Source: Lachnospiraceae bacterium MD308 (GTDB lineage: Bacteria > Bacillota > Clostridia > Lachnospirales > Lachnospiraceae). From it: a stretch of 44,448 nucleotides of DNA. Numbering within the stretch: position 1 is the stretch's first letter; every line of letters starts with the position of its first letter. This document shows positions 9,128 through 42,069 of this stretch, one piece after another. Made by a program: the position numbers and the translations under genes. The DNA is taken from assembly GCA_010206225.2 (NCBI GenBank), contig VIQU02000031.1, forward strand, positions 1-44,448, in the 5' to 3' direction. Under the pieces are notes generated by a model. It was not told where the DNA came from. It did no database searches and saw only the letters and a list, made by a program, of their open reading frames with translations.

Positions 9128-9635
9128 GGTAAATGAAAAAACCGTATCGCTGTGTATCAATGGCGGCAAGATTTCCGCACGGATTCTGAAAGTGGCTATG
9201 CTGAAAGCGCTGGTAAGACTGGAGCAGGAGAAGCATAGAGGGAAGCAGCGGCTTAAGGAAATGAAATCAGGAAAAGAGAGTGCGGTCTATCATGGGAAAC
9301 AGAGTATGGAGAAGCTGATGAAGCAGAACTGCCAGCTTTCCAATATCGAAGTTACGGATGGAAATATTAAATCTTTTGAGAAATGTGCAAGGAAATATAA
9401 CATTGATTTCAGTTTGAAAAAGGATACGTCCATATCTCCGCCACGTTATTTTGTATTTTTTAAGGCGAAGGATGTGGATGTCATGACTGCCGCCTTTAAA
9501 GAGTATACCGGGCAATCCCTGAATAAGAGTAAGAAACCTTCCATTCGCAAGAAGCTGGAGCAGGCAAAGGAGCGGACTGCAAAGCACAGGGAGCGGGAAA
9601 AGACGAAACAGAAAGAACGGGGACCAGAGCATTGA
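9117..9635 (+). CDS. pcfB: PcfB-family (DUF3801) conjugation protein
   Basis: A 172-aa protein starting at TTG behind AAGGAGG. It matches the PcfB/DUF3801 pattern: an N-terminal strand VSLCINGGKISARILK, then the signature around NIEVTDGNIKSFEKCARKYNIDFSLKKD, then RYFVFFKAKDVDVMTAAFKEY. In pCF10, PcfB is an accessory factor for the coupling protein and relaxosome. The basic tail starting KKPSIRKKLEQAKERTAK resembles the tails of three other proteins of this element. The gene ends in a TTGA overlap with virD4, so the two are translationally coupled. Confidence 0.9.
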   Translation: MQDEVNEKTVSLCINGGKISARILKVAMLKALVRLEQEKHRGKQRLKEMKSGKESAVYHGKQSMEKLMKQNCQLSNIEVTDGNIKSFEKCARKYNIDFSLKKDTSISPPRYFVFFKAKDVDVMTAAFKEYTGQSLNKSKKPSIRKKLEQAKERTAKHREREKTKQKERGPEH

Positions 9636-11584
9636 GAAGAAAACAGGTAAAGAAAAAGAAAGCTGCGGCAAAACCGGAATCTGTACAGTTATCAAAAAAA
9701 GTTAAGGATATGATCCATGAAAAAATGCCTGTTGTGGATGGGAAACGGTTAGTTATGCTGAATATTCCCTATGTGATTGTATTTTATTTGGTAGACAAGA
9801 TCGCATGGCTGTACCGTCACTGTATCGGGGATTCCCTGATAGTGAAAGCAGGGGTGTTGTTCCTGAATTTTCAGATGGCATTTGAAAATCCGTTGCCGAG
9901 TTTACATGGATATGATCTGTTGGCAGGCATTGGCGGTGCTATTATCGTGAAGCTGATTGTATATATGAAAGGGAAAAATGCGAAGAAATACCGGCAGGGC
10001 GAAGAGTATGGTTCTGCCCGGTGGGGGACACCGAAAGACATCGCTCCATTTATTGATCCGGTATTTGAGAATAATATCCTGCTGACACAGACGGAACGGC
10101 TGACTATGGAAAGCAGACCGAAGCTGCCTAAATATGCAAGAAATAAAAATGTGATTGTAATTGGTGGCTCTGGATCTGGTAAAACACGTTTCTATGTAAA
10201 GCCACAGCTTATGCAGATGCCGCAAAAGGTTAGCTTCTGTGTCACTGATCCAAAAGGTACTATCCTGGTCGAATGTGGAGAGATGCTGAAACGTGGCACG
10301 CCGAAGATGAATCATGGGAAACCAGTACGGGATAAAAACGGAAAAGTAGTTTATGAGCCGTATAAGATCAAGGTGCTGAATACCATTAATTTTAAGAAAA
10401 GTATGCATTACAATCCGTTCCAATATATCCGCTCTGAAAAAGATATATTGAAACTGGTGAATACAATCATTGCAAACACCAAAGGGGAAGGGGAGAAATC
10501 TTCTGAAGATTTTTGGGTGAAGGCCGAGAGGCTTTTGTATTGTGCGCTGATTGGTTATATCTATTATGAAGCGCCGGAGGAAGAACAGAATTTTTCTACG
10601 CTGCTAGAGTTCATCAATGCTTCAGAAACCAGAGAAGATGATGAAGAATTTAAAAATGCTGTGGATGAACTGTTTGAGGAGCTGGAGAGGGAAAAGCCGG
10701 AACACTTTGCAGTACGGCAATATCGCAAGTTCAAGCTGGCGGCGGGCAAAACTTCAAAATCGATCCTGATTAGCTGTGGTGCAAGGTTGGCTCCGTTTGA
10801 CATAGCGGAACTTCGGGAGTTGACTTCTTATGATGAAATGGAACTGGATATGATTGGGGATCAGCGCACGGCAATGTTTATCATTATCTCCGACACGGAT
10901 GATACATTTAATTTCATTGTGGCAATCATGTATACCCAGCTATTCAATCTTCTGTGCGACCGTGCGGATGATGTGCATGGAGGCAGGCTGCCTTATCATG
11001 TAAGGCTTCTATTGGATGAGTTTAGTAATATCGGGCAGATTCCGAAGTTTGACAAGCTGATTGCAACGATACGAAGCAGGGAGATTTCAGCGTCGATTAT
11101 TTTACAGTCGCAGAGCCAGTTGAAAACCATCTATAAAGATGCAGCCGAAACGATCCTCGGCAACTGCGATACTATGTTGTTTCTTGGAGGCAAGGAAGGG
11201 TCTACGCTGAAAGAGATTTCTGAAACCCTTGGAAAGGAGACTATAGATCTTTATAATACGTCGGATACCCGTGGACAGAGCCGATCTTATGGATTGAATT
11301 ATCAGAAAACGGGGAAGGAATTAATGAGCCGGGATGAACTGGCGGTTATGGACGGGAATAAGTGTATCCTGCAGTTGCGTGGAGTGCGCCCGTTCTTAAG
11401 TGACAAGTTTGATATAACACGGCATAAGCGGTACAAGGAATTATCAGATTATGATAAGAAAAATGCCTTTGATGTGGAGGCATATATGAAACACCCGTTA
11501 AAAATCAGGATGAAGGAGGAGTTTGATTTATATGAAGTGGATGGAAGTGAAGGTGATTCGGATGAATTAGAAGAAGGGCAGTAA
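9632..11584 (+). CDS. virD4: VirD4-like type IV coupling protein (CD1115 family)
   Basis: A 650-aa TraG/VirD4 ATPase that brings DNA-protein substrates to the type IV secretion channel. The N-terminus has two or three membrane helices (about 40-65, 70-85 and 93-110). It is followed by the KYRQGEEYGSARWGTPKDI linker typical of the family, Walker A GGSGSGKT (178-185) and Walker B LLLDEFSNIG (Asp462-Glu463). Sensor-like IILQSQSQLKTIY and the closing segment ILQLRGVRPFLSDKFD also fit. The TTG start overlaps the pcfB stop. Length is normal for the family and no damage is seen. The gene is followed by the palindromic repeat region rather than directly by the rest of the transfer genes. Confidence 0.95.
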   Translation: MRRKQVKKKKAAAKPESVQLSKKVKDMIHEKMPVVDGKRLVMLNIPYVIVFYLVDKIAWLYRHCIGDSLIVKAGVLFLNFQMAFENPLPSLHGYDLLAGIGGAIIVKLIVYMKGKNAKKYRQGEEYGSARWGTPKDIAPFIDPVFENNILLTQTERLTMESRPKLPKYARNKNVIVIGGSGSGKTRFYVKPQLMQMPQKVSFCVTDPKGTILVECGEMLKRGTPKMNHGKPVRDKNGKVVYEPYKIKVLNTINFKKSMHYNPFQYIRSEKDILKLVNTIIANTKGEGEKSSEDFWVKAERLLYCALIGYIYYEAPEEEQNFSTLLEFINASETREDDEEFKNAVDELFEELEREKPEHFAVRQYRKFKLAAGKTSKSILISCGARLAPFDIAELRELTSYDEMELDMIGDQRTAMFIIISDTDDTFNFIVAIMYTQLFNLLCDRADDVHGGRLPYHVRLLLDEFSNIGQIPKFDKLIATIRSREISASIILQSQSQLKTIYKDAAETILGNCDTMLFLGGKEGSTLKEISETLGKETIDLYNTSDTRGQSRSYGLNYQKTGKELMSRDELAVMDGNKCILQLRGVRPFLSDKFDITRHKRYKELSDYDKKNAFDVEAYMKHPLKIRMKEEFDLYEVDGSEGDSDELEEGQ

Positions 11585-11626
11585 AGACACATATTCAAAT
11601 ATTGTTTTTAAAGGCTATTTATCTAA

Positions 11627-11790
11627 TGAAACTTTGCGACACGATGTCGTAAAGTTTCATACGGAATAGCTCCTTGGAAATTGATAGGAAGAAAAACTTT
11701 ACGACATGCTGTCCTAAAGTCGATTTCGGGTAGAATGATTTTTTGAAGTCCGGTAGGAAGAGAAAACTTTACGACACGATGGCGCAAAGT
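11627..11790. repeat. Palindromic repeat array A (3 copies)
   Basis: Three copies of a 25-base imperfect palindrome of the form ACTTTRCGACACGATGTCG plus YAAAGT start at 11631, 11696 and 11766, spaced 65 and 70 bases. The first copy extends to a 33-base hairpin (11627-11659) with TGAAACTTT and AAAGTTTCA arms around CGACA/TGTCG and a CGA loop. The last two are degenerate in the right arm. The gap 11585-11977 holds this array, the promoter at 11904 and no other gene. Confidence 0.85.
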
Positions 11791-11903
11791 TGTGAAATTC
11801 TGTTAAAAGCAATTAAAAACAGTCAGAGCCAGGATCAAAGAAGATATTTAGATAGTATATTTTGTAGAATTAATATAGTAGCAGAGTGAGAGGGGATTTT
11901 GAA

Positions 11904-11932
11904 TTGTGATTGTAATGAAGAAGTGCTATACT
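11904..11932 (+). promoter_or_regulatory. Promoter for the cargo genes
   Basis: TTGTGA (11904-11909), a 17-base spacer and TATACT (11927-11932), 45 bases before the kinase start at 11978. The cargo therefore appears to have its own promoter. Confidence 0.55.
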
Positions 11933-11977
11933 GGTGTTGGAAAATAACATTACAAATCGGAATTGATGGAGTATCAT

Positions 11978-12502
11978 ATGGGAACAGGAATTATTGTTTG
12001 TGGTCTTAATGGTTCTGGTAAGAGTACATTGGGGAAAGCTCTTGCAGAGAAATTAGATTTTCATTTTATGGATAACGAAGATTTATATTTTCCCAAGACA
12101 AACCCTAATTATGTTTATTCTTCCCCACGCACTCGAGAAGAAGTTGAAAAGCTCCTTTTTAGTGAGATTAAAGCACATGAGAATTTTGTTTTTGCTTCTG
12201 TAAAGGGGGATTACGGAAAACATATTTATCCTTTCTTTCGGTATGCTGTATTGATTGACGTTTCAAAGGATATTCGGATACAACGAGTTAGAAATCGTTC
12301 TTTTCAAAAATTCGGTAATAGAATGTTAATGGGCGGCGATTTATATGAGCAGGAAGAAAAGTTCTTTGAACTTGTTAAATCTCGTCCAGAGAATACTGTT
12401 GAAGAATGGATACAATCTTTGAAATGTCCTATCATACGCATTGATGGAACGAAGTCTATTGAGAAAAATGTAGACTTTATCATTGAGCAGTTACAAAATT
12501 AA
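11978..12502 (+). CDS. P-loop kinase of the shikimate/adenylate-kinase-like superfamily (cargo)
   Basis: A small ATP-binding protein of about 174 aa. It begins MGTGIIVCGLNGSGKSTLGKALAEKL, with Walker A GLNGSGKST at residues 9-17, a following FHFMDNEDLYFP segment like the acceptor-binding part of shikimate or gluconate kinases, and a lid-like RVRNRSFQKFGNR region. The substrate cannot be told from sequence. The ATG at 11978 has GGAG six bases upstream; alternatives are ATG 11966 or TTG 11963. AT-richer codon use than the transfer genes and the separate promoter suggest it is passenger DNA. It could serve stress response or small-molecule modification; it is not a conjugation gene. Confidence 0.8.
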   Translation: MGTGIIVCGLNGSGKSTLGKALAEKLDFHFMDNEDLYFPKTNPNYVYSSPRTREEVEKLLFSEIKAHENFVFASVKGDYGKHIYPFFRYAVLIDVSKDIRIQRVRNRSFQKFGNRMLMGGDLYEQEEKFFELVKSRPENTVEEWIQSLKCPIIRIDGTKSIEKNVDFIIEQLQN

Positions 12503-12683
12503 ATTCAAGTTTGTGTATAAACAGAAAAAATCGAAGTTTGAAGAAGATTTTTATACCTAAATCAAGATAGATTGCAGGGCAAATCCAATCAACCATAGGT
12601 GGAATGTGCTTAATTCAACTAATAGTTCGTTTATCATGACACGATTTTCCAATACGATATACACAGAAAGGAGGTTTTCGGAG

Positions 12684-13151
12684 ATGAATCAGAATGAGAT
12701 AGGAAAGTTTATTGCGTCCTGTCGTAAAGAAAAAGGATTGACACAAATGCAGCTTGCAGAACAATTGAATATTACAAATCGGGCAGTATCGAAATGGGAA
12801 ACCGGAAAAAGTATTCCTGATGTGTCAATCATGATGGAACTGTGTGATATTTTAGGGATAACCGTAAATGAACTATTAAGTGGAGAAAGGATTGCTATGG
12901 AGGATTATAAAGCAAAGGCAGAAGAAAATATGCTTTTATTGCAAGAAAAGAAAGCAAAGGCAGAAAAAGATTTTCGACGTGTGGAAAAGATTTGGCTGAT
13001 AGTTGCGGTATTACTTACACCAATTCATTTTGCAATTAATTATTATTTCCCTAATAACAATGGAACAGGGATTGGTTTGGTTATACTTTTTATTGGACTG
13101 ATTATGTATACAGTCTATTTTGGGCAACATTATGAAATTAGACTAAAGTAA
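12684..13151 (+). CDS. XRE-family regulator with C-terminal membrane segment (cargo)
   Basis: A 155-aa protein with an HTH_3 domain at residues 1-65: NEIGKFIASCRKEKGLTQMQLAEQL, then NITNRAVSKWETGKSIPD and the closing MMELCDILGITVNELLSGE. A charged coiled region (about 70-105) follows, then two short hydrophobic spans (LIVAVLLTPIHFAINYYF and IGLVILFIGLIMYTVYF). This HTH-plus-membrane layout is common in Firmicutes XRE proteins. The ATG at 12684 is chosen for its AAAGGAGG site and the HTH boundary; the upstream extension is not conserved-looking. It is the second cargo gene, about 180 bases after the kinase. Its target is unknown. Confidence 0.85.
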   Translation: MNQNEIGKFIASCRKEKGLTQMQLAEQLNITNRAVSKWETGKSIPDVSIMMELCDILGITVNELLSGERIAMEDYKAKAEENMLLLQEKKAKAEKDFRRVEKIWLIVAVLLTPIHFAINYYFPNNNGTGIGLVILFIGLIMYTVYFGQHYEIRLK

Positions 13152-13217
13152 ACAGATTTCTATTAGAGAAATTCCAGTTTGTAGGAATATGCAAATCGTA
13201 AAAAGGTGGAGATAATC

Positions 13218-13475
13218 ATGCATGAATTAACATCAATGATGAATATTGGTAAAGAAATGGAGAAAAAGCTAATATCTGTCGGTATCGAATCTTCTGAAAA
13301 ACTTATTGCGGTAGGTGCAAAAGAGGCATTTCTTAGATTAAAGCAGAAATATCCGAATGTGTGTCTTGTGCATTTATATACATTAGAGGGAGCAATTCAT
13401 GATATAGAATATAACAGGCTTTCAGAAGATACGAAAAAAGAATTGAAAGAATTTAGTGATTTTTTGAAAAAGTAA
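13218..13475 (+). CDS. TfoX/Sxy C-terminal domain protein (cargo)
   Basis: An 85-aa protein, MHELTSMMNIGKEMEKKLISVGIESSEKLIAVGAKEAFLRLK. The NIGKEMEKKLISVGI…L..VGAKEAF pattern is the helix-hairpin-helix-like TfoX C-terminal domain found alone in many Firmicutes. The residues NVCLVHLYTLEGAIHDIEYNRLSED follow the family to its end. The start at 13218 has AGGTGGAG upstream. Stand-alone copies have no proven role in competence. It sits in the AT-rich cargo block between the XRE regulator and the DUF1877 protein. Confidence 0.85.
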   Translation: MHELTSMMNIGKEMEKKLISVGIESSEKLIAVGAKEAFLRLKQKYPNVCLVHLYTLEGAIHDIEYNRLSEDTKKELKEFSDFLKK

Positions 13476-13544
13476 CAATAACGCAAGTTCAAGTTTTCTA
13501 TTTATTAAAAGGAAACAAAAGAGAAATTTATAGGAGAAAATATT

Positions 13545-14087
13545 ATGGGTTGTTTAGCAGTTTTATTTGCATTGAAAGAGCAGGAAGTAGAAGAACTTTT
13601 GGCAGTAGAAAGAAGTGAGCGTTCTGAATATATGCACGAGGAAATTGAGGAAATATTTTTTGATGATTTTCCTGAATATACATGTGAATTAGACAAATCA
13701 TGGGACGCAATGCACCGGATGCTGACAGATGGGAATCTTAATTTTGAAAACAAATATCCGCCGTTATGTAATGTGATCTTTGGAGGAGAGTTTGTATATG
13801 GGTTGGAGCGTAAACCGTCCGGAGAGGTTGTAATTATTGATGATGAAGATGATGAATACATGATTTTGAAAACACCGGATCAGGTGATCAAAATAGCGGA
13901 GGCACTTCCCAAAAGGACAAAGGAAGAATGCCGGAAATGCTATGATATGATCGACGAAGGCGATTATGGTATGGAGCTGGATGATGAAGATTTTGAATAT
14001 ACATGGGAATATCTTCGGGACAGTTTGGATTTTTGGGAAAAGGCGGCAGAAGAAAAACGATATGTGTTGTTTACAGTTGACAGATAA
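13545..14087 (+). CDS. YfbM/DUF1877 family protein (cargo)
   Basis: A 180-aa acidic protein with the DUF1877 layout. It starts MGCLAVLFALKEQEVEELLAV, then WDAMHRMLTDG (the W-x-L/M-H-x-x-L signature), then NVIFGGEFVYG, TPDQVIKIAEALPKRTKEE and a C-terminal EYLRDSLDFWEKAAEEKRYVLFTVD. The family is widespread and of unknown function. AGGAG precedes the ATG. It is the last gene of the cargo unit and is followed by a terminator at 14177. Confidence 0.85.
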   Translation: MGCLAVLFALKEQEVEELLAVERSERSEYMHEEIEEIFFDDFPEYTCELDKSWDAMHRMLTDGNLNFENKYPPLCNVIFGGEFVYGLERKPSGEVVIIDDEDDEYMILKTPDQVIKIAEALPKRTKEECRKCYDMIDEGDYGMELDDEDFEYTWEYLRDSLDFWEKAAEEKRYVLFTVDR

Positions 14088-14176
14088 TAGTGCTTTAAGA
14101 TACATGATTTCAAATTCAGAAGTTTAAGGATGTGCGGTTGAATAAAATTAAATAATGGTTATCAATACAAATCAGG

Positions 14177-14212
14177 AGCGGTAAAGCTATCACCATAGTT
14201 TTATCGCTTTTC
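14177..14212 (+). terminator. Terminator ending the cargo unit
   Basis: A 14-bp stem AGCGGTAAAGCTAT (14177-14190) pairs with ATAGTTTTATCGCT (14195-14208) through two G-T pairs and a CACC loop, followed by TTTTC. Between here and 14442 I see only the perfect hairpin GCATGGT/ACCATGC (14324-14340), likely in the toxin mRNA leader. Confidence 0.75.
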
Positions 14213-14442
14213 TTATGCAAAAACAGAAGGGGTAATTATGACAGAAATTATAAGTAAATAAAATATCAGAATAGCTAAGGGGATAATTGTTGAACTGAGC
14301 GGAAAAAGTGGTAATCTGTCTTTGCATGGTATTACCATGCAGGAAAGTATCCATGACAGGGTGGTGACCTCCCGGATTTACATAACCAGCTTCCTAAAGG
14401 ATTCCTTTGGTATGGCTGGAGAGAAGAAGGGAGGTGCGTAAC

Positions 14443-14559
14443 ATGACAGCTTATGAGATCATTTCGATTTTCATTGGGATATTAGCATTGCTGATATCCT
14501 TTGGTAGTTTAGTTGTTGCGTTTCTTGCCTTTCTCGATAAGAGGAACAAGAAGAAATAA
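14443..14559 (+). CDS. Type I toxin of the TxpA/BsrG holin-like family
   Basis: A 38-aa peptide starting MTAYEIISIFIGILALLIS, with one membrane helix and a DKRNKKK tail. Its length, MTxYE start and basic end match BsrG/TxpA-type type I toxins (Hol_Tox family) of Firmicutes, which insert in the membrane and disturb cell-wall synthesis. GGGAGG lies ten bases before the ATG. A hairpin in the leader (14324-14340) could limit translation. On the opposite strand a strong promoter at 14661-14689 and a perfect terminator over 14555-14591 define an antisense RNA that overlaps the 3' end, the normal control for this family. It lies between the cargo and repeat array B, and would stabilise the element (inference). 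Confidence 0.8.
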   Translation: MTAYEIISIFIGILALLISFGSLVVAFLAFLDKRNKKK

Positions 14560-14655
14560 AAATGCCTATCCTGTCTGCCAACAGGATAGGCGGTGTCCGT
14601 AAGGACATTTTAACCAATCCCGGAGGCATCCACTTTGGAGTGGGTGCTTTCCTTA
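14555..14655 (-). ncRNA. Antisense RNA antitoxin of the type I system (predicted)
   Basis: It starts about 7 bases after the minus-strand promoter (14661-14689). It runs through a hairpin with arms GCACCCAC and GTGGATGC, and ends at a perfect minus-strand terminator: GCCTATCCTGT, loop TGGCAG, ACAGGATAGGC, then ATTTTTATTTC. The roughly 100-base RNA would pair with the toxin mRNA 3' region and the last codons. Start and end are predicted, not measured. Confidence 0.7.
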
Positions 14656-14660
14656 TGTCT

Positions 14661-14689
14661 AATATATCATTTCTTTATGTAAAAATCAA
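14661..14689 (-). promoter_or_regulatory. Promoter of the antisense RNA
   Basis: Read on the minus strand: TTGATT (14689-14684), a 17-base spacer, TATATT (14666-14661). It points toward the toxin gene. Confidence 0.7.
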
Positions 14690-14783
14690 CGATGATTTCT
14701 ATAGTGTTTGCAGACACAGAGAATGAAAAAAGATGTAATCGCTTCATTTATAGTTGAGAAATTTCCCCAAAGCAGATAAAAGA

Positions 14784-15006
14784 ACTTTGCGACACGATGT
14801 CGTAAGGTTGATTATATACAGAACAGAGAGTATGGAACTATGTAAATAAAGACTTTACGACACGATGTCGCAAGGTTGGATTGCCGCAGAGCAGATTCAT
14901 GAAATCAAGGAAAGAACTTTACGACATGATGTCGCAAGGCTAAATCGCTACAGAGCAGATTCTATGAAATTAGGCAGAAAAACTTTACGACACGGTGTCG
15001 CAAAGT
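14784..15006. repeat. Palindromic repeat array B (4 copies)
   Basis: Four copies of the same 25-base palindrome as in array A start at 14784, 14852, 14916 and 14982, so the spacing is 64-68 bases. The spacers are themselves partly alike (CAGAGCAGATT and ATGAAAT recur), which makes a degenerate tandem repeat of about 66 bases. The remaining stretch from 15007 to 15259 holds a long-range pairing (GTGCAGT 15031-15037 with ACTGCAC 15109-15115) and the hairpin at 15172, but no gene. Confidence 0.85.
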
Positions 15007-15201: not shown

Positions 15202-15259
15202 TGTGCAGAAACAGGATGAAATATTCTGTATATTTCTGATTTGGGTTACAGGAGAATTT

Positions 15260-16366: not shown

Positions 16367-16376
16367 GGAGGTGGCT

Positions 16377-33977: not shown

Positions 33978-34580
33978 GTGCGACACGAAGTCGCTTAATT
34001 TAACTGTTTGGCGGTAATACCGACCAAACCATCCATTCCGTTGGATGAAGCCGTTGCCCCCGGCTCTGCCAGTAATGGCACTGTTCGGAAGCGGGCATAA
34101 ACGTAGCCCTATTTAGAATCCAAACCGTGAGGGGAGGATGAAGCTGCCAGCTACAAGGCGGTTAGGGTGCAGGCTTTTTATTGATAGCATGGTTAATTAA
34201 CTGAATCACCGTAAGCTTCGTTAAGGCTGAACAAGCCAAAGTAGCTGACAGGCTTGAACCAAAAAGGTGTGCAGTTGGATATTCCTTTCCACATTGGGAA
34301 TACACGGACGTAAGACTGCCGGAGTAGAGGTGGGACCTAAACTATCAGATAATTGTTGATTAAGTGGAACGTGTCAAGCCCGTATTCTCGCCTGCAAAGG
34401 CAAGCCGACCGTAAGGAAAGCCGTTGGGAATGCGGGTATAGGATTGCGGAAGAAGCGAATGCCGGCTTTGTAATGAAGCCGGATAGGGGTTCAAGATTTG
34501 CCCTGCCCGAAAGGGTGCCCAATTCCGCGTGGTGCTTGATTACGAGAGAATTTATAGAATTTTTGAAAGGAGTAAAGCAA

Positions 34581-36251
34581 ATGAACGGTAAAACGTGTGC
34601 GACTTCTGACGTTGCAAAGGCTTGGAACAGGATTGACTGGAACAAAGCCGAAGCATACGTTAAAAAACTGCAAATGCGTATCGTAAAGGCTCATCAGCAG
34701 GGCAGGACAGGCAAGGTAAAATCCTTGCAGTGGCTGCTCACACATTCTTTTTACGGACGTGCTTTAGCCGTAAAGAGGGTGACAAGTAATAAAGGCAAGA
34801 AAACAGCAGGAGTAGATAACGTATTATGGTCTACCCCAAAACTGAAATACGAAGCGATTTTCAGCTTGAAGCGCAGGGGATATAAGCCCCTGCCACTAAA
34901 GAGGGTGTATATACCGAAGAAAAACGGAAAAATGCGCCCATTAAGTATTCCATGCATGAAGGACAGGGCAATGCAGACATTATATAAATTTGCATTGGAG
35001 CCGATTGCAGAAATCACCGCCGACCCGAATTCTTACGGATTCCGGGCAAAACGGTGTGTGCAGGACGCCATTGAGCAATGTTTCACCTGTCTGAATAAAA
35101 GGAAATCCCCGAAGTGGGTGTTAGAAGGAGATATTAAAGGCTGTTTCGATAATATCAGCCATGAATGGATTCTGGATAACATCTCAATGGACAAGGATAT
35201 CCTGCGTAAATGGCTAAAAAGCGGTTACATTGAAACCGGGCGGTTATTCCCGACAGACTTGGGAAGCCCGCAAGGTTCATCTATCTCACCAACTATCTGT
35301 AACATGGTTTTAGATGGCCTGGAAGTAAAACTAAAAGAGAAATACTACAAGAGAACCATCGGGGGGAAGCCATATTCACCAAAAGTAAATTTTATTCGCT
35401 ATGCCGATGATTTTATTGTTACAGGCGAAAGTAAGGAATTGTTGGAGAATGGTGTGCTTCCAATCATCCGGGATTTTCTGTCAGAGAGAGGATTAGAACT
35501 GTCAGAAGAAAAGACAGTCATTACCCATATCGAAGATGGATTTGATTTTCTCGGAAGCAACATAAGGTGGTACAAAGACAAACTTCTTACAAAACCATCT
35601 AAAAAGAATTATAAAGCCATAGTAAGCAAGATAAGGGAGATAATCAAGAAAAATCCGTCTATGAAGCAGGAGGATTTGATACGCAAGCTGAACCCGGTCA
35701 TCCGTGGCTGGGTGAACTTCCAGAAATATAATGTTTCCTCACAGGCATTTGAAAGGTTTGATTTTGATGTCTGGAGATGCCTGTGGCAATGGTGTAAGCG
35801 CAGGCATCCGAAAAAGAGCCACAAATGGATTGCAAAGAAATATTTCAGACAGGTTGGCAAGAGAAGTTGGACATTCAGCGTTAAAACGACAGATTCGTTC
35901 GAACTGCATTTGATTTATGCCACGGACACCAATATCATACGGTGGCTGAAAACAAAATCGGAAGCGACACCATTTGATGAAAAGTTTACAGAATATTTCG
36001 AGGATAGGGATACAGAGAGGATGTTTCGGGAAATCAATGGGAGAAAGAAGCTGAATGCTCTTTATAAAGCGCAGAAGGGAATCTGCCCTCACTGTGGAGA
36101 AGCAATCACGGTAGAGAGGGGATTCAGAATCCATTCCGAGATAGGAGCGGATTTCAAAGAAAAGAAAATGCTGCTACATGCCGAATGCCATAGGGCATTA
36201 CATTACTTGAAAAACACTGATGAACCGGCTCTGGTGACACAGGGCTTATAA
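34581..36251 (+). CDS. ltrA: Group II intron-encoded reverse transcriptase/maturase with HNH endonuclease
   Basis: A 556-aa LtrA-type protein. The ATG at 34581 is chosen for its AAAGGAG site; the longer upstream frame lies in the folded intron RNA. The RT domain shows VYIPKKNGKMRPLSIPCMKDRAMQ, LEGDIKGCFDNISHEW, GSPQGSSISPTICN and the catalytic FIRYADDFIV. Then comes a maturase (X) domain with LIRKLNPVIRGWVNFQKY. The C-terminal CPHCGE…HSE…HAECHRALHY is an HNH-type endonuclease. All parts look intact, so the protein could both help splicing and drive retrohoming. It ends six bases before domain V. Confidence 0.95.
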   Translation: MNGKTCATSDVAKAWNRIDWNKAEAYVKKLQMRIVKAHQQGRTGKVKSLQWLLTHSFYGRALAVKRVTSNKGKKTAGVDNVLWSTPKLKYEAIFSLKRRGYKPLPLKRVYIPKKNGKMRPLSIPCMKDRAMQTLYKFALEPIAEITADPNSYGFRAKRCVQDAIEQCFTCLNKRKSPKWVLEGDIKGCFDNISHEWILDNISMDKDILRKWLKSGYIETGRLFPTDLGSPQGSSISPTICNMVLDGLEVKLKEKYYKRTIGGKPYSPKVNFIRYADDFIVTGESKELLENGVLPIIRDFLSERGLELSEEKTVITHIEDGFDFLGSNIRWYKDKLLTKPSKKNYKAIVSKIREIIKKNPSMKQEDLIRKLNPVIRGWVNFQKYNVSSQAFERFDFDVWRCLWQWCKRRHPKKSHKWIAKKYFRQVGKRSWTFSVKTTDSFELHLIYATDTNIIRWLKTKSEATPFDEKFTEYFEDRDTERMFREINGRKKLNALYKAQKGICPHCGEAITVERGFRIHSEIGADFKEKKMLLHAECHRALHYLKNTDEPALVTQGL

Positions 36252-36257
36252 GTGCTT

Positions 36258-36291
36258 GAGCCGTGTGAGGGGAAACCTTCATGCACGGTTC
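36258..36291 (+). ncRNA. Group II intron domain V (catalytic hairpin)
   Basis: A 34-base hairpin, GAGCCGTGTGAGGG, loop GAAA, then CCTTCATGCACGGTTC, with the AGC catalytic triad at 36259-36261 and the usual two-base bulge. A domain VI-like stem (GCGGTA/TACCGC, about 36304-36319) follows before the 3' splice site. Confidence 0.9.
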
Positions 36292-36332
36292 TTAGGGGGG
36301 AAGGCGGTAGTAATACCGCTGACCTACCCGAC

Positions 36333-37319
36333 CAGATTTTGGAGAACAAGCAGAAATTTATTAGCCAGATCATGACGAGCAAATCTCCCGTCCGTGCATG
36401 TGAGGATGTGGACGATACGGCGCTTTCGTATGCTGAGATCAAAGCCCTGGCCACCGGTAATCCATATATCAAAGAGAAGATGGATCTTGATATCCAGGTA
36501 AGCAAGCTGAAACTGCTAAAGGCAAACCATACGAGCCAGAAATACCGCCTGGAGACGGAAATCGCAAGAAATTACCCGGTTAAGATTACGGCGCTGAAGG
36601 AGCGTATTGCAGGACTAAAGGCAGATGTTAACACAGTAAAGCCGCTTTTAAAGAAAGATAAGGAAAAAGATGATTTTACGATGGTTATCGGTGGGAAAAC
36701 CTATACAGACCGGAAAGAAGCCGGGACAGCGCTGATTGCTGCCTGCGCTGGGTTAAAGGCTGTAAAAACAGCCGGACAGATTGGAGAATTTCATGGATTT
36801 ACATTGTCCGCTAATTTTGATGGTTTTGCGCAGTCGTTCCAGTTGACTATCAAGGGACAGTGCAGTTATCAGATAGAAGTGGGGAAAGATCCGCTGGGTA
36901 ATCTATATCGTATCAGTAATGCTCTTACTGGAATCGAAAAGAAGCTGGCAGAGGCAGAATTAAATCTAGAAACTGTGCAACAGCAGCTTGCTACGGCAAA
37001 GGAAGAAGTAGAGAAGCCGTTTGTGAAGGAAGAAGAACTGGCGGAAAAAATGGAACGGTTGTCAGAATTAAATGCTTTGCTGAATATGGATGATAACGGA
37101 CCGTCGGAGGCGTTGGGTATGGAAGAAGGAATACAGGAAGTGGCAGACTGTCCGAGAAAATCTGTCACGCTGGCAGGACGGGTGTCGGAGAACTCCAAAA
37201 TTGCAGACGAAGTGAGGAAGCCCTCTGTATTGGATAAATTGAAAGAGGCAAAGGAACGAATTGCCGGAAATCGTGGAAACAATCGGAAACCAGACAGGAA
37301 AATAGAACAGGAATTATAA
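36333..37319 (+). CDS. Giant methylase/helicase, exon 2 (C-terminal part)
   Basis: The last 328 codons of the helicase gene, beginning QILENKQKFISQIMTSKSPV directly after the intron. It contains the conserved DVDDTALSYAEIKALATGNPYIKEKMDLD segment, coiled-coil regions (TSQKYRLETEIARNYPVK and ALTGIEKKLAEAELNLE) and a C-terminal tail with KPSVLDKLKEAKERIAGN. It has no start of its own, so expression depends on intron splicing. The tail resembles those of PcfB, the ArdC/LtrC-like protein and the YodL protein of the same element. Confidence 0.9.
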   Translation, partial: QILENKQKFISQIMTSKSPVRACEDVDDTALSYAEIKALATGNPYIKEKMDLDIQVSKLKLLKANHTSQKYRLETEIARNYPVKITALKERIAGLKADVNTVKPLLKKDKEKDDFTMVIGGKTYTDRKEAGTALIAACAGLKAVKTAGQIGEFHGFTLSANFDGFAQSFQLTIKGQCSYQIEVGKDPLGNLYRISNALTGIEKKLAEAELNLETVQQQLATAKEEVEKPFVKEEELAEKMERLSELNALLNMDDNGPSEALGMEEGIQEVADCPRKSVTLAGRVSENSKIADEVRKPSVLDKLKEAKERIAGNRGNNRKPDRKIEQEL

Positions 37320-37324
37320 AATAG

Positions 37325-37389
37325 ACGGGATGTATCCAAAAAAGCTGTACTTCTATAAGAAAGAGAATGGCTTTAAGGGTACATCCCGT
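37325..37389 (+). other. Stem-loop between helicase and ArdC/LtrC-like genes
   Basis: A perfect 10-bp inverted repeat, ACGGGATGTA (37325-37334) and TACATCCCGT (37380-37389), encloses a partly paired 45-base loop and sits just before the GGAGGG site of the next gene. No T-run follows, so it is more likely an mRNA stability, processing or translation-control element than a terminator. Confidence 0.55.
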
Positions 37390-37409
37390 TATCAGAATGG
37401 AGGGAATTT

Positions 37410-40400
37410 ATGGCAGGAAAAAGGGAAGAACAGATGAAGGAGATTACAAAGCGGTTAGAGCAGGGTGTTCAGGAGCTGTTTACTTCAGAGAAATATATGA
37501 ATTATCTGAAAACAATGTCGCAGTTCCACAATTACAGCTTTAACAATACGTTGCTGATTTCGATGCAGAAGCCGGAAGCGACACTGGTAGCCGGGTTTAG
37601 CTCATGGAACAAGAAATTTAACCGCCGTGTAAAGCAGGGGGAGAAGGGGATTAAGATCATTGCTCCAGCACCAATACGGAAGAAAGAGGAAATAGAGAAA
37701 TTTGATCCGGTGACAAATGAGCCGATCCTTAAACCGGATGGACAGCCAGAGACAGAGGAAGTAGTGCATATCATTCCACGGTTTTGTGTAGCAACCGTTT
37801 TTGACATATCACAGACTTATGGCGATCCAATCCCGGAGCTGGATACACCGGAGCTATTAGGGAGTGTGGAAAATTTCCCGGTATTCATGGAAGCGATTGA
37901 AAGGACATCCCCCGTGCCTATGCACTATGAAGAGATAGAGGGAGAATCAAAAGGATATTACAGTAGTACGGATAAAGAAATAGCGATTCAGGAAGGTATG
38001 AGTGAGATGCAGACGATGAAAACTGCTGTCCATGAAGTAACTCATGCCATGTGTCACGACAGAGACATTATGGAGGAATTGGGGGAAAAGAAAAACCGGA
38101 TGACCAAAGAGGTGGAAGCGGAGAGCGTTGCTTATACAGTCTGCAGCTGTTTCGGACTAGATACGTCAGATTATTCTTTCCCGTATATAGCCGGCTGGTC
38201 GAGTGATAAGGAGATAAAGGAACTGCGCTCTTCGATGGATTTTATCCGGAAAACGGCTGGTTCTTTTATTGACAGCATGGTGGAGAATATGCAGGAACTG
38301 CAGAAAGAAAAAGAAGCAATGCAGGATGTAGTTATAAATGAGAATGAAGGACTGCTTTATACAGACACAACGGATCGTTACGCTATTTTTCAGATTGATG
38401 AAGATGGAAAAGGCCGGGATTATTTGTTTTTGGGAATAGATTATATAAAGGATCATGGTATAGAAATAGACGGCAGTGATTATTCGCTGGTTTATAGCGG
38501 CAGACTTGAAAAGAATGATAATTTAGATACAATTTATGAAAGATTCAATATCAATCATCCGGAAGGGTATACCGGACATTCCCTTTCTGTCAGTGATGTA
38601 GTGGTTATAAATCGTGATGGAAAAGCGTCTGCACATTTTGTAGATAGTTTCGGTTTTACAGAATTGCCGGATTTTATACATCAGAGAGGACAGTTAATAG
38701 GGATAGAAGCGGCGGATCAGGAGCAGGAAGAAACAATATATCCACCCGTCTATACCCACACACTTGCCTATGCTATGGCGCATGGAAAGGTAGACGATCA
38801 TTTCGAATCCCGGAAACAGAATATCGACTGTAAAAAGGCGGTAGAAACAGCAATCCGGGAAAACTTTGACGGGCTGCGGTTGGAAAAAGGAGCGGTAGAT
38901 TCTGTCCTTGAGGAATATGGTGCAGAACGCCTGACATTCATTCTTGCCAACACAGTGCAGTATTTGGAACATGACGGGCGGTTTTCAAGGAATACTAAGG
39001 AATGGGCAAATGGATTTAAAATATCGGAAAACATTGTCCGTGGAACGGATCTGAACCAGGATTATGTTATTACCAGCCATCCGGCTGTATTGGATGGCTT
39101 TATCGGGTTTGCAAGAGAAAAAATGCAGGAACACAATTTGCAGCAGGAAACAACAGTACTGATTAATGAAGAAACCAGAGGATTTACGGTAGACGGGCAT
39201 TTCGGCACATGGCACACCGCAGGAGTTAGAGAAATCAGAGGGGAAATGCTTTATCTGATGGAGCATGATGAATATGAAGATTCTGTTGCTTCTGTCATTG
39301 TGAATCAGGAAGGGAAGCTTGTAGCAGAAGATTTGGAGCATGGATTTGACAAGGGAGCAATGGATGCGATCAATGAATATTTTGCAGAAAAGGGAGTGGC
39401 AGACGAGCAGAAAACTTCATTTATCGCACAATACTATGTCCTGCATGAAGCGTATGGAGAGGATTCTGATAACAAATATGAATATTTTGAGGATTGGAAA
39501 GAGGCGCTGAAAGCCTATCATCGGATTCCGAACCATGTAGATAAGAGCATCGGTATGGAGAGTACGGAGCAGCCTTCGTCCAAAATGTCCTTAATTGAGT
39601 GCCGGAACGGAGTAGAAAAACCTGCGAATATAGATATTTCTTCAATTAGTGGGGAATGGCTGCGTGACGAAACGATAGAAGCGCTGCAGAGAGCAAAGGA
39701 ATATTTTGAGAACCGTGAGACGGAGCTGGCATATGAGTTGAAAGACGGATATTTTTCAATCCATACAGCTTCAGAAGGGTATGATTATACGGTTTATGGC
39801 AAAGATTTTCGGGAGATTGACGGCGGAATATATGAGGATTCAGATATATCCATTCGTGAAGCGATGGAAACAATCCTCAGTGATGAAGGTATTGCGGTGG
39901 CAGGCTGTAAGGTTATGGATTATGAAGAATTACAAGAGGCAGTCAATCGTGTGGCACAGGAAGACATACAGAAAGAGCAGGAAAAAATACAGGAGAAAGC
40001 GCAACTGATTTCTGACCGTGCAGAGCCGGAAACTGCGTTAAATGGTTGTAGTTGTGCAGATATAGAGGAAACGGTATTAAGCTATGCTCAGGCACAGATT
40101 GACGATATGGGACTTGAAGGAGAGGTAGAGCTGCTTGGTGCAAGGGTGTACGGCAGCCGTTCTAGGGAGGGATTATATCATGAAGGTTCGGATATAGATG
40201 TTGTGGTATCTTATAGCGGTAGTGAAGCTTTAAAGGAAGATGATTTTTTTAATATGCTTCATGAAGATGGATTAAAGATTGCAGGTATCCTGGTTGACAT
40301 CAACCCAATCTCAACAGAAAAAACTGGAACACTGGAGAAATATATGGAGAAGGCAGAAAAATATTTAGATGAAAAGCAGAAAACAATAGAAATGTCAAAA

Positions 40401-40967
40401 GAAGTAACGCCAGAGACGGGGGAACGGATTTCATTTTATGTAGCAGAATGTATGGAATTTCATGTCCTGGGGGAATACCATGAGCAGGTGGAAACACTGC
40501 AGGAAGCTATGGACTTATACGAAAAGATCCCCGCAGAGCGGATGAGCGGCGTCAAAGGGATTGGATTCTGTTTGGAGGACGGGAGTATCTATGATGGGAT
40601 GCCCCAGGATCTGATGCGTCTGGGGAGGCTGGAAACAGATCTGGTCAATGAGATCTCCCATTATAAGAACAGTGCCTTAGTACAAAAGACAATTGCAGAG
40701 CTGGAGACGATTCTTGCAGAGCAGTCGGCAAAGAAGATTACGGAGCCTGAGAAAAAGCCGGAGAAGGAGCTTGAGCAAAAAATGGAGAAAAAGCCGGAAA
40801 AAGCGGACGAGGCAGTTCCAAAGGATGATAGTAGCATATCCGCAGGCAGTAAAAAACAGTCCGTCTTAAATGCCCTTCGTGAACGTCAGGAAAGGATGAA
40901 AGCACAGGATAAAGAAAAACAGGGACAAAAAACACAGTCACGCAGGAAAGGGGAGCTGGAATTATAA
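37410..40967 (+). CDS. ArdC/LtrC-like polyvalent protein with metallopeptidase, YodL, DUF3849 and nucleotidyltransferase domains
   Basis: A 1185-aa multidomain protein. An ArdC-like ssDNA-binding N-terminus (1-130; SFNNTLLISMQKPEATLVAGF) is followed by a metallopeptidase-like block with HEVTH (His208-Glu209-His212). Then come YodL (about 325-425, HSLSVSDVVVINRDGKASAHFVD), DUF3849 (about 445-545, YTHTLAYAMAHGKVDDHFES), an LPD28-like region near 595-660 (FGTWHTAGVREIRGEML), and a nucleotidyltransferase fold at about 890-985: VYGSRSREGLYHEGSDIDVV (Gly915, Ser916, Asp928, Asp930) with DINPIS (Asp963). The basic tail KKQSVLNALRERQERM closes it. Such polyvalent proteins are thought to enter the recipient with the DNA and counter host defence. 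It follows the helicase by 90 bases and abuts the next gene. Confidence 0.88.
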   Translation: MAGKREEQMKEITKRLEQGVQELFTSEKYMNYLKTMSQFHNYSFNNTLLISMQKPEATLVAGFSSWNKKFNRRVKQGEKGIKIIAPAPIRKKEEIEKFDPVTNEPILKPDGQPETEEVVHIIPRFCVATVFDISQTYGDPIPELDTPELLGSVENFPVFMEAIERTSPVPMHYEEIEGESKGYYSSTDKEIAIQEGMSEMQTMKTAVHEVTHAMCHDRDIMEELGEKKNRMTKEVEAESVAYTVCSCFGLDTSDYSFPYIAGWSSDKEIKELRSSMDFIRKTAGSFIDSMVENMQELQKEKEAMQDVVINENEGLLYTDTTDRYAIFQIDEDGKGRDYLFLGIDYIKDHGIEIDGSDYSLVYSGRLEKNDNLDTIYERFNINHPEGYTGHSLSVSDVVVINRDGKASAHFVDSFGFTELPDFIHQRGQLIGIEAADQEQEETIYPPVYTHTLAYAMAHGKVDDHFESRKQNIDCKKAVETAIRENFDGLRLEKGAVDSVLEEYGAERLTFILANTVQYLEHDGRFSRNTKEWANGFKISENIVRGTDLNQDYVITSHPAVLDGFIGFAREKMQEHNLQQETTVLINEETRGFTVDGHFGTWHTAGVREIRGEMLYLMEHDEYEDSVASVIVNQEGKLVAEDLEHGFDKGAMDAINEYFAEKGVADEQKTSFIAQYYVLHEAYGEDSDNKYEYFEDWKEALKAYHRIPNHVDKSIGMESTEQPSSKMSLIECRNGVEKPANIDISSISGEWLRDETIEALQRAKEYFENRETELAYELKDGYFSIHTASEGYDYTVYGKDFREIDGGIYEDSDISIREAMETILSDEGIAVAGCKVMDYEELQEAVNRVAQEDIQKEQEKIQEKAQLISDRAEPETALNGCSCADIEETVLSYAQAQIDDMGLEGEVELLGARVYGSRSREGLYHEGSDIDVVVSYSGSEALKEDDFFNMLHEDGLKIAGILVDINPISTEKTGTLEKYMEKAEKYLDEKQKTIEMSKEVTPETGERISFYVAECMEFHVLGEYHEQVETLQEAMDLYEKIPAERMSGVKGIGFCLEDGSIYDGMPQDLMRLGRLETDLVNEISHYKNSALVQKTIAELETILAEQSAKKITEPEKKPEKELEQKMEKKPEKADEAVPKDDSSISAGSKKQSVLNALRERQERMKAQDKEKQGQKTQSRRKGELEL

Positions 40968-41197
40968 TGATACGGTTTGAGGAAAATGAGTGTATTTTGG
41001 TAGCGATGTTCCAAGAAGAAAGCAGGCAGGGAACAATAGAAAAAATACATAGCATACTTCCATATATTATGGGCGAAGATGTAGAAGTGCTTGCTTTGAT
41101 TAATAGTACATTGGAAAAGTTGGAAACTCTTTCAGATAAAGCATTTTTGAGCATAGATTGGGAGCAGTATAAGCAAGAGCCGATGGAGGATGAATAA
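40967..41197 (+). CDS. Transposon-transfer assisting (TTRAP) family protein
   Basis: A 76-aa acidic protein, MIRFEENECILVAMFQEESRQGTIEKI, continuing LPYIMGEDVEVLALINSTLEKLETLSDKAFLSIDW. The early aromatic/acidic start, the xSRxGTI segment and the closing LxKLExLSDxxFxxxD match the small TTRAP proteins found beside LtrC-like genes. The biochemical role is unknown. Its ATG overlaps the last base of the previous stop, and its own end overlaps the next start, so it sits in a tightly coupled group. Confidence 0.85.
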   Translation: MIRFEENECILVAMFQEESRQGTIEKIHSILPYIMGEDVEVLALINSTLEKLETLSDKAFLSIDWEQYKQEPMEDE

Positions 41198-42069
41198 TGG
41201 ATATTAATCAGTTTGCAGTTTATCAGCTTAAGAATATCCCGGAAAACCGGGAAATACGGTTTCGTTCATCTAAAATGCTGCAGGAAAAGAAAATACAGAT
41301 ACGGTATGAAGCTTATGAGGAGGTTTATTTGGGGTATATGCAGCCGGCGGATACACCAGAGAATATCCGCAGCCGATTGGATAAGCAGTTGCCCCGGACA
41401 TTTAAAGGTCATTCTATCAGCGTCAGTGATGTGCTGGTGTTGAATAAAGAAGGTGTTGTGACCTCCTATTATGTTGAAAAGGGTGGATTTACAGTAATAG
41501 CAGGATTTATCAGAAACAGTTCGTCTGGTGCGATTGTATCTTTCGGTACTATGGATTTTCATATCGAGGGGAAGGAGGGGAGCTGGCATGCTTTTGACAG
41601 TATTGTCGTTAACGGAAAACAATTCTTCCTAATGGAGCATGAAAAACATGGGAGAGAAGTCGCATGGACAGTGGTGGACGAAGCAGGGAAGCTGATTGTA
41701 GACAGTACATATGTCGGCTTTGACCAGCCGGTTCTGAAGCAGATCAAGGAATACCTTAATCCTTCCCAATCGGTTATGGAAGCAGACATACAAGAGCAGT
41801 CTCTTGGAAATAATAAGGGCAAACCGTCACTTGAGAACTGGCAGAAATATATGGAGAACGGCGAGTATCTCCGGAGTTCTGAGATTGAAGAAGAGCAGAA
41901 CTACAATATGATTGACGGAAGGCGGAATAATATGTCCCCGAAAAATAAAAAAGGCAGGACATCCGTATTAAAAAAACTGCGTCAGAAGCAGGTGGAGATA
42001 GCAAGGCGGAGCGGTAAGGCTGCGCCGCAGATGGCAGAGGAAGAGGATATGGAGCGTAGACAGAAATAA
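41197..42069 (+). CDS. YodL/DUF4316 family protein
   Basis: A 290-aa protein with an N-terminal YodL domain (FAVYQLKNIPENREIRFRSS and, at 65-90, FKGHSISVSDVLVLNKEGVV). An LPD28-like region (110-185; EGKEGSWHAFDSIVVNGKQFFLMEHE) follows, then a linker and a basic tail (GRTSVLKKLRQKQVEIARRS). The YodL and LPD28-like parts are diverged copies of the same domains in the 1185-aa protein two genes upstream, pointing to domain duplication. It is the last gene of the transfer operon, closed by the terminator at 42076. The function is unknown. Confidence 0.85.
   Translation: MDINQFAVYQLKNIPENREIRFRSSKMLQEKKIQIRYEAYEEVYLGYMQPADTPENIRSRLDKQLPRTFKGHSISVSDVLVLNKEGVVTSYYVEKGGFTVIAGFIRNSSSGAIVSFGTMDFHIEGKEGSWHAFDSIVVNGKQFFLMEHEKHGREVAWTVVDEAGKLIVDSTYVGFDQPVLKQIKEYLNPSQSVMEADIQEQSLGNNKGKPSLENWQKYMENGEYLRSSEIEEEQNYNMIDGRRNNMSPKNKKGRTSVLKKLRQKQVEIARRSGKAAPQMAEEEDMERRQK

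What the first reader, a model, noticed from the sequence alone, without database searches (positions are those of the whole stretch)
9537..42069. Four different transfer proteins share a similar basic C-terminal tail
Seen: PcfB ends with KKPSIRKKLEQAKERTAK (about 9537-9635). Helicase exon 2 ends with KPSVLDKLKEAKERIAGN (about 37217-37319). The ArdC/LtrC-like protein ends with KKQSVLNALRERQERM (about 40847-40967). The YodL protein ends with GRTSVLKKLRQKQVEIARRS (about 41947-42069). The common form is K/x-x-S-V/I-x3-L-(K/R)-x2-(K/Q/R)-x-(R/E), followed by a basic end. The proteins are otherwise unrelated. Inference: this could be a shared docking or secretion signal for the type IV coupling complex, marking proteins that travel with the DNA or bind VirD4/PcfB.
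Basis: partly seen in the sequence, partly recalled or inferred. Interest (0 to 1): 0.8.

Follow-up and report, generated by a model that had tools for sequence, protein, structure and literature searches.

The report
Shared C-terminal tag on conjugation cargo
Many otherwise different proteins of a common family of bacterial conjugative elements end in the same short helical tag, which is missing from the parts of the transfer machine itself and probably marks the proteins that are sent into the recipient cell along with the DNA.

Summary
The four tails are real and part of something larger. A 17-column profile trained only on PcfB tails finds the motif ([KR]-P-S-[VI]-x3-L) at the C-end of 47 of 1035 other proteins from 43 related stretches, against about 1 in shuffled ends, 0.4 in internal stretches, 7 in reversed ends and 6 in N-ends. 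Carriers are PcfB itself and "polyvalent"/anti-restriction proteins (methylase-helicase, ArdC, ArdA, YodL/DUF4316, DUF3849, DUF5688) that Iyer et al. 2017 predicted to travel with the DNA, plus some relaxases of other elements. Fifteen machine and donor-side families have it in 0 of 347 proteins, the elements' own MOBP relaxases in 0 of 32. Within an element, tails of non-homologous proteins resemble each other more than tails of different elements, though unevenly (15 of 25 elements). Best reading: a type IV secretion substrate signal of PcfB-type systems. This is inferred; there are no binding or transfer data, and PcfB's role is open. Ten paper searches showed no report of it.

The parts
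9531..9632 (+). C-terminal tail of PcfB (DUF3801 protein, ORF 9117-9635): KKPSIRKKLEQ..., Ser142 before a predicted helix 143-166
   Evidence: Pfam DUF3801; AF2 model
37218..37316 (+). C-terminal tail of the methylase-SNF2 helicase (3' ORF 36252-37319, behind a group II intron): KPSVLDKLKEAKERIAGN...EQEL
   Evidence: score 27.8; intron
40851..40964 (+). C-terminal tail of the ArdC-N/YodL/DUF3849/LPD16/LPD18 polyvalent protein (ORF 37410-40967): KKQSVLNALRERQERM...ELEL
   Evidence: score 10.9
41953..42066 (+). C-terminal tail of the YodL/LPD18/DUF4316 protein (ORF 41197-42069): GRTSVLKKLRQKQVEIA...DMERRQK
   Evidence: score 12.4
9632..11584 (+). VirD4-type coupling protein gene, overlapping the end of pcfB; no tail; candidate receptor
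   Evidence: PcfB followed by a VirD4-family gene within 60 nt in 31 of 34 elements; VirD4 family 0 of 55 with tail

Best explanation
The tail is a C-terminal substrate signal of PcfB-type (Tn1549-like, VirD4 'CD1115' and VirB4 'CD1110' families) conjugative type IV secretion systems. It is a short amphipathic helix capped by Pro-Ser ([KR]-P-S-[VI]-x3-L-x2-[FA]-K-E-x-[VA]) followed by a mostly basic end of some 15-22 residues (window values). It would be read by the coupling complex (VirD4, with or without PcfB) in the donor, so that the anti-restriction, ssDNA-binding, methylase-helicase and related proteins, and the relaxases of some mobilizable elements, are threaded through the channel with or beside the DNA and act at once in the recipient. 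Shown: the motif, its C-terminal place, which proteins have it, the absence from machine parts, the link to PcfB-bearing genomes, and element-specific resemblance. Inferred: recognition by VirD4/PcfB, and translocation. PcfB carries the same tail either because it is itself exported or, as I find equally possible, because it is an adaptor whose own tail sits in the substrate site.
For: (1) Motif outside its training family: 47 of 1035 vs 0.95 shuffled and 0.4 internal at score >=10; 29 vs 0.0 and 0.0 at >=16. Eight PcfB left out of training by the ORF caller all score 24.8-38.6 (8 of 8). (2) Who has it: PcfB 33 of 33 (training set); YodL1306, LtrC, SNF2-helicase, YodL290 and hyp314 families together 34 of 49; 15 machine/donor-side families 0 of 347 (VirD4 0/55, VirB4 0/39, VirB6 0/36, Topo3 0/28, MobC 0/21 and others); MOBP relaxase 0 of 32. 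Pfam bodies of carriers. (3) Relaxases, the established T4SS substrates, can carry it too: MOBQ (PF03389) 4 of 28 distinct unselected search loci, 8 of 60 with loci that I picked; MOBV (PF01076) 0 of 26 unselected, 3 of 30 with picked ones; MOBP 2 of 29 in a later class-wide draw. Six of these carriers' surroundings (L315/316, L317, L318, L322, L326, L327; 12.7-29 kb) show no machine gene with Tn1549 queries, as expected of mobilizable elements. (4) Named check: on pMG2200 (Tn1549-type vanB region) 3 of 24 proteins scored have it (PcfB 27.3, the 1306-aa YodL protein 24.1, the 314-aa protein 17.4). (5) Co-occurrence: 32 of 36 tail-positive genomes have PcfB vs 58 of 259 tail-negative (p 7e-15); phylum-wide draw 5 of 5 vs 9 of 294 (p 1e-7); partly circular, since many matches are PcfB tails. 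(6) Covariation: within-element pairs of non-homologous proteins 20.6 vs 11.5 between (60 and 2166 pairs), 0 of 2000 permutations; the 27 columns upstream show none; residue-shuffled tails give 1.3 of the 9.0 difference; not recent DNA copies (nt identity 0.46 within vs 0.40 between, at most 0.63).
Against: No binding or transfer data. The elements' own MOBP relaxases lack the helix motif (0 of 32). Covariation is uneven: 15 of 25 elements positive, own-PcfB rank only 0.386. Tail frequency of MOBQ relaxases is the same in PcfB-positive (6 of 45) and PcfB-negative genomes (2 of 15), and MOBV 2 of 20 vs 1 of 10, so these do not track a resident PcfB system. The MOBV carriers all come from loci that I picked for likeness to known ones. 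pCF10, whose VirD4 and VirB4 bear the same family names, has no tail on any of 24 proteins scored, PcfB included. A Lacticaseibacillus plasmid has only its PcfB at 10.4, with the Ser 23 from the end. Reversed C-ends score above shuffles (7 of 1035; 4 of 200 basic ones), so charged helices give some background.
Confidence: 0.7

Rival explanations
1. DNA-binding tail: a basic helix that lets these proteins coat or load on the transferred strand, with no role at the coupling protein.
For: Tails are often basic at the end (PcfB: 29 of 34 with five or more K/R in the 16 residues before the last two; other carriers 25 of 44); many carriers are nucleic-acid proteins; the PcfB model's best Foldseek matches are KH domains, but at E 0.067 only.
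Against: Element proteins that also handle DNA but act in the donor lack it: Topo3 0 of 28, MobC 0 of 21, MT-A70 0 of 3, MOBP relaxase 0 of 32. 16 of the 44 non-PcfB carriers do not have a basic last-40 stretch by my cut-off. A fixed P-S-[VI]-x3-L core and element-specific variants are not needed for unspecific DNA binding.
Confidence: 0.12
2. Scaffold/assembly tag: the tails bind PcfB (or each other) to gather these proteins at the pore or relaxosome in the donor, without export.
For: PcfB of the elements studied carries it (33 of 33; 8 of 8 left out of training; 17 of 18 in viral contigs) and is mostly followed directly by VirD4 (31 of 34); tails covary within elements.
Against: Anti-restriction and polyvalent functions make sense in the recipient, not in the donor (Iyer et al. 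2017, PMC5512222; abstract, passages and sections 28 and 33 read); relaxosome and machine partners lack the tag; covariation with the own PcfB is the weaker part.
Confidence: 0.13
3. Chance or composition: basic, lysine-glutamate-rich C-ends look alike.
For: Reversed C-ends give some hits (7 of 1035) and N-ends 6 of 1035; one match of the genome search (L064) reads by eye as the N-part of a charged coiled-coil protein.
Against: 28 of 200 basic C-ends vs 0.2 shuffled and 4 reversed; 0 of 30 basic machine parts; 0 of 20 basic proteins of other held loci; Ser 24-40 from the end in 44 of 47; viral-contig set 5 of 495 vs 0.1 of 394 shuffled.
Confidence: 0.03

Closest known systems
C-terminal T4SS translocation signals (Agrobacterium VirB/VirD4 substrates; Legionella RalF)
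   Same: Short C-terminal stretch, basic or hydrophobic, on several substrates of one system (as summarised in passages of PMC3912908, and PMC11288057).
   Different: Here there is a definite sequence motif with a predicted helix after a Pro-Ser about 31 residues from the end, in Gram-positive PcfB-type systems; substrate status is inferred, not tested.
Bipartite BID-domain + charged tail signal of Bartonella effectors
   Same: Structured element plus charged C-end shared by many effectors (passage in PMC3912908).
   Different: Far shorter (about 40 residues); carriers are conjugation proteins rather than effectors for host cells.
Pfam DUF4316 (PF14195) and the end of DUF3801 (PF12687)
   Same: These models already include the tail of the YodL-type proteins and of PcfB.
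   Different: The helicase and LtrC tails hit neither model; I saw no statement of the cross-family sharing, but did not see the Pfam entry texts beyond their titles.
Polyvalent proteins (Iyer et al. 2017, PMC5512222)
   Same: Same kinds of protein, already predicted to be delivered with the DNA.
   Different: In the abstract, passages and two sections I read the paper names no targeting tail; 'secretion signal', DUF4316 and DUF3801 have 0 occurrences in its text.
F-plasmid protein translocation (PMC8406263, start of abstract in a listing; PMC11288057, passages)
   Same: A conjugation system sends proteins (SSB, ParA/B, PsiB) into recipients; C-terminal or internal signals.
   Different: Gram-negative; signals vary and no common motif is named in what I read.

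Membership tests
C-terminal T4SS translocation signal | Lies at the C-end of the substrate | tested here: met
   All matches at E<0.01 of the iterated profile end within 15 residues of the C-end (its training rows were limited to C-terminal hits, the search was not); Ser 24-40 from the end in 44 of 47
C-terminal T4SS translocation signal | Carried by several unrelated proteins of one system, including known substrate types | tested here: met
   Pfam bodies; MOBQ, MOBV and MOBP relaxases of other elements
C-terminal T4SS translocation signal | Carried by the system's own relaxase | tested here: not met
   0 of 32 MOBP relaxases of PcfB elements have the helix motif; they share only the last residues, [ES][LR] in 15 of 32
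C-terminal T4SS translocation signal | Necessary and sufficient for export; binds the coupling protein | not testable with these tools
   needs reporter-transfer and binding assays
C-terminal T4SS translocation signal | Absent from structural parts of the machine | tested here: met
   0 of 347 proteins of 15 machine/donor-side families; 0 of 107 in the viral-contig set
Pfam DUF4316 | Scores above the curated cut-off | tested here: inconclusive
   Only the YodL protein does (43.4 vs 25 bits); PcfB, helicase 3' ORF and LtrC do not, so the tail as a class is not DUF4316
Polyvalent proteins | Several LPD/ArdC/MPTase/YodL domains in one chain | tested here: met
   LtrC-like protein: ArdcN, YodL, DUF3849, LPD18, LPD16 above cut-off; the helicase and the short YodL protein only in part

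The most novel reading that the evidence does not exclude
PcfB-type conjugative elements use a general, element-specific 'boarding pass': PcfB, bound to VirD4, presents a pseudo-substrate tail that keeps the entry site closed; cargo proteins and parasitic mobilizable relaxases carry variants of the same tail and compete for the site, so that the tail sequence decides which proteins, and which hitch-hiking elements, an ICE will carry.
Probability: 0.25. Interest if true: 0.85.

Novelty: new variant of a known kind. Interest (0 to 1): 0.72.

Why it matters
If true, it gives a readable export signal for a common group of Gram-positive conjugative elements (PcfB was found in 90 of 295 genomes of this order), among them the vanB element type on pMG2200. 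It turns the 2017 prediction that polyvalent proteins are co-injected into a testable list of cargo, and it may offer a sequence rule for which mobilizable elements can use which ICE.

Tried and rejected
Regex scan of C-ends: too loose, replaced by profiles. The four-tail profile over the own genome missed the 318-aa C73 protein that the regex found, so the first profile was too narrow. Genome-contig scan with LtrC: one locus only, not used further. pCF10 as experimental anchor: no tail on the 24 proteins scored, so its data do not bear on this; the Prg/Pcf names that I gave its genes are recalled. PDB by sequence: one match at E 0.27, no use. Fold of PcfB: mean pLDDT 72, KH-like at E 0.067 at best, too weak to name a function. 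The idea that the tails are recent DNA duplications was rejected. The idea that all relaxases share the helix motif was rejected. Of the four tail-positive, PcfB-negative genomes of the order draw, G202 (L064) reads by eye as the N-part of a charged coiled-coil protein, a false positive; G243 is a MOBQ relaxase; G271 is MobV-like but below the NCBIfam cut-off (23.8 of 100 bits); G058 (a 43-aa frame) was not examined at that place.

Choices made after seeing data: score cut-off 10 (one search gives ten cut-offs), spacing 24-40, and the terminal-dipeptide pattern, which was then tested on sets not yet read for it. The 40 PcfB loci were picked from the list for room on the contig. Genes are greedy longest ORFs from a script, not an annotation; it lost PcfB in 8 of the 40 loci, found again. 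Some of the 60 and 30 relaxase ORFs look like wrong-frame reads, and one of the 29 is a 117-aa frame. Of the 40 relaxase regions fetched several were picked because they looked like known carriers, so the totals are biased upwards; one search gives the unselected loci apart. PSSM counts also miss cases: a MobA_MobL protein with KKTSLLRKLDEKKKE was found by the HMM but scores 1.7 in the PSSM.
Full report
What is there. The window is a whole contig (44,448 bases) of an unnamed 4.35-Mb genome. It holds a Tn1549-like conjugative element: pcfB (9117-9635) overlapping a virD4-type gene, T4SS genes, a topoisomerase-like gene, a methylase-SNF2 helicase interrupted by a group II intron (Rfam matches at 34029-34169 and 36256-36332), an ArdC/YodL polyvalent protein, a TTRAP protein and a YodL/LPD18/DUF4316 protein. 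No PF03432 relaxase was found on this contig: the ten matches of the genome are on other contigs, and the genome's single PF03389 and PF01076 matches are on C123 and C67.

Is it more than chance? I fetched the stretch from 2 kb before to 38 kb after pcfB for 40 PcfB loci of the same order, picked for room on the contig (L117 and L152 gave only 3.1 and 4.7 kb, L146 24 kb), plus the window and two other contigs of its genome: 43 stretches, 1810 greedy ORFs. From the 34 PcfB C-ends recovered I made a 17-column profile and scored only proteins outside the PcfB cluster with at least 140 residues (1035). At score 10 or more there are 47 real C-ends, against 0.95 per replicate for shuffled ends, 0.4 for random internal stretches, 7 for reversed ends and 6 for N-ends; at 16 or more the numbers are 29, 0.0, 0.0, 2 and 0. 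The Ser of the motif lies 24-40 residues from the end in 44 of the 47. Among 200 proteins with a basic C-end 28 carry it, vs 0.2 shuffled and 4 reversed; basic machine parts 0 of 30; 138 proteins, 20 of them basic, from held loci of the own genome outside the PcfB elements 0. The eight PcfB that the ORF caller had lost, and that were not in the profile, score 24.8-38.6. Thirty loci from viral contigs that hold a PcfB relative give 17 of 18 PcfB and 5 of 495 others, vs 0.1 of 394 in shuffles; one of the five (L185) looks like a divergent PcfB.

The motif. Over 78 tails (34 PcfB, 44 others) the commonest residues are K/R at -2 (74), P at -1 (54), S at 0 (75), V or I at +1 (70), L at +5 (75), K at +9 (47), E at +10 (39), V/A/I at +12 (51); the profile selects for this, so the numbers are not independent of it. 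In the AlphaFold2 model of the window PcfB (25 sequences, mean pLDDT 72, pTM 0.43) a helix runs from 143 to 166, directly after Ser142, as expected if Pro-Ser caps the helix. PcfB genes are followed by a VirD4-family gene within 60 nt in 31 of 34 elements.

Who carries it. By phmmer with pMG2200 (Tn1549-type) and window proteins as queries, the carriers' tails cut off, 15 machine and donor-side families have 0 of 347 carriers (VirD4 55, VirB4 39, VirB6 36, C40 peptidase 35, CD1107 34, Topo3 28, DUF6017 27, PrgI 24, Maff2 22, MobC 21, CysVLP 9, DUF4315 8, MT-A70 3, TTRAP 3, DUF5348 3). PcfB has 33 of 33; YodL1306 8 of 12, LtrC 12 of 17, SNF2 helicase 8 of 13, YodL290 2 of 2, hyp314 4 of 5; 15 more matches fall in none of these families, among them one divergent PcfB (L150) and one dubious frame (L140_22228). 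Pfam domains found on tail proteins: ArdcN, ArdA, LPD15/16/18/26, YodL, DUF4316, DUF3849/3848, DUF5688, DarA_C with DUF6674, RadC, CHC2 zinc finger, metallopeptidases, MobA_MobL (37 proteins scanned, not all of them carriers, several carriers without any match). Iyer et al. 2017 (PMC5512222; abstract, passages, sections 28 and 33 read) predicted this class of protein to be delivered with the DNA; in what I read they mention no targeting tail. On pMG2200 3 of 24 proteins scored have it: PcfB, the 1306-aa YodL protein and the 314-aa protein. In pCF10 0 of 24 scored have it, PcfB and the ArdC-like protein included; on a Lacticaseibacillus plasmid only PcfB reaches 10.4, with the Ser 23 from the end.

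Relaxases. The PcfB elements' own MOBP relaxases have no helix motif (0 of 32); of 16 MobA/MobL relaxases in the same stretches 1 has it. Among relaxases of the 295 genomes, the unselected search loci give MOBQ 4 of 28 and MOBV 0 of 26; with 40 further regions, several of them picked for likeness to known carriers, the totals are 8 of 60 and 3 of 30 (PF03389, PF01076; Pfam of three carriers). In a class-wide draw made later, 2 of 29 MOBP relaxases have it. Around six carriers (G686 and G603 MOBP; G158, G277, G083 MOBV; G271, MobV-like below cut-off) 12.7-29 kb show no T4SS gene with these queries, only MobC in two; L319, L320, L325 are too short (7.5-8.9 kb) to tell; in L324 and L328 the relaxase gene lies between ICE genes, in L321 beside them, as an inserted mobilizable element would. 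Against a simple picture, tail frequency does not differ between PcfB-positive and PcfB-negative genomes (MOBQ 6 of 45 vs 2 of 15; MOBV 2 of 20 vs 1 of 10).

A second, more general feature. The last two residues are [ES][LR] in 21 of 34 PcfB, 19 of 44 other tail carriers, 15 of 32 MOBP and 13 of 16 MobA/MobL relaxases, against 44 of 1214 other ORFs. A looser pattern was chosen after looking. On sets not read for this before, 15 of 18 PcfB and 2 of 2 MobA/MobL and 7 of 29 MOBP relaxases of the class-wide draw (p 1e-4) have it; machine parts 5 of 107 and other ORFs 21 of 291. So relaxases and tail carriers share the extreme end even where the helix motif is missing. This is what a two-part export signal would look like, but the held-out MOBP fraction (24%) is lower than in the first set (47%), and the PcfB ends of the viral set had been printed earlier.

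Distribution. With the seven-tail profile, 36 of 295 genomes of the order match at E<=0.01; 32 of them have PcfB, against 58 of 259 without a match (p 7e-15; partly circular, since many matches are PcfB tails). Phylum-wide 5 of 299 match, all five among the 14 PcfB-positive genomes (p 1e-7); one of these matches (G380, 277-aa frame) is not at the PcfB place and lies about 7.5 kb from it.

Covariation. For pairs of tails from proteins without body homology (blastp 1e-3), mean BLOSUM62 over 24 columns is 20.6 within an element (60 pairs) and 11.5 between elements (2166 pairs); 0 of 2000 label permutations reach the within value; the 27 columns upstream give no difference. Shuffling residues inside tails leaves 1.3 of the 9.0 difference. 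The effect is uneven: 15 of 25 elements are positive, 39 of 60 pairs exceed their matched expectation, and a tail's own-element PcfB ranks only slightly better than chance (mean 0.386, n=39, p=0.03). The tails are not recent DNA copies (nt identity 0.46 within, 0.40 between, at most 0.63).

Reading. Carriers are proteins expected to act in the recipient, or relaxases; parts that stay in the donor lack the tail. A DNA-binding role alone does not explain why Topo3, MobC and the elements' own relaxase lack it. I therefore take it as a substrate/coupling signal of PcfB-type systems (0.7). Whether PcfB is receptor, adaptor or cargo is open. In ten searches of the open-access library (listings and starts of abstracts seen) I found no description of this tail; most subscription papers and all preprints are outside that library.

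Noticed in passing
window 34029-36332: A group II intron (two Rfam matches; RT/maturase-like ORF 34353-36251) sits inside the methylase-SNF2 helicase gene; the second match ends at 36332, so the listed ORF 36252-37319 begins inside the intron.
   Followed up: partly
relaxases and tail carriers: MOBP and MobA/MobL relaxases often end in [ES][LR] (15 of 32 and 13 of 16) after a basic stretch, like the tail proteins and unlike other ORFs (44 of 1214); MOBV ends look alike by eye.
   Followed up: partly
L324, L328 (and L321): MobA/MobL relaxase genes lie between (L324, L328) or beside (L321) ICE genes, as if mobilizable elements had inserted into the ICE.
   Followed up: partly
G000:C73:28678-28779 (L010): A short frame encodes a YodL-type tail without its body (RASVLKKLRQKQAGIAKRSGK), probably a decayed copy of the same kind of element.
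   Followed up: no
window 9117-9632: The PcfB core is weakly KH-like in Foldseek (best E 0.067), which would fit single-strand nucleic acid binding; model confidence is moderate.
   Followed up: no
window 2789-8593: A 1934-aa protein of repeated modules with a PKTGDD...FRKKRK end looks like a sortase-anchored conjugation adhesin (by eye, not searched).
   Followed up: no
L099:191-1531, L156:15450-16694, L172:8994-10394: A family of 414-466 aa proteins (83-94% identical bodies) carries an RESIxEKL-like variant of the tail; the L099 member has no Pfam or NCBIfam match; function unknown.
   Followed up: partly
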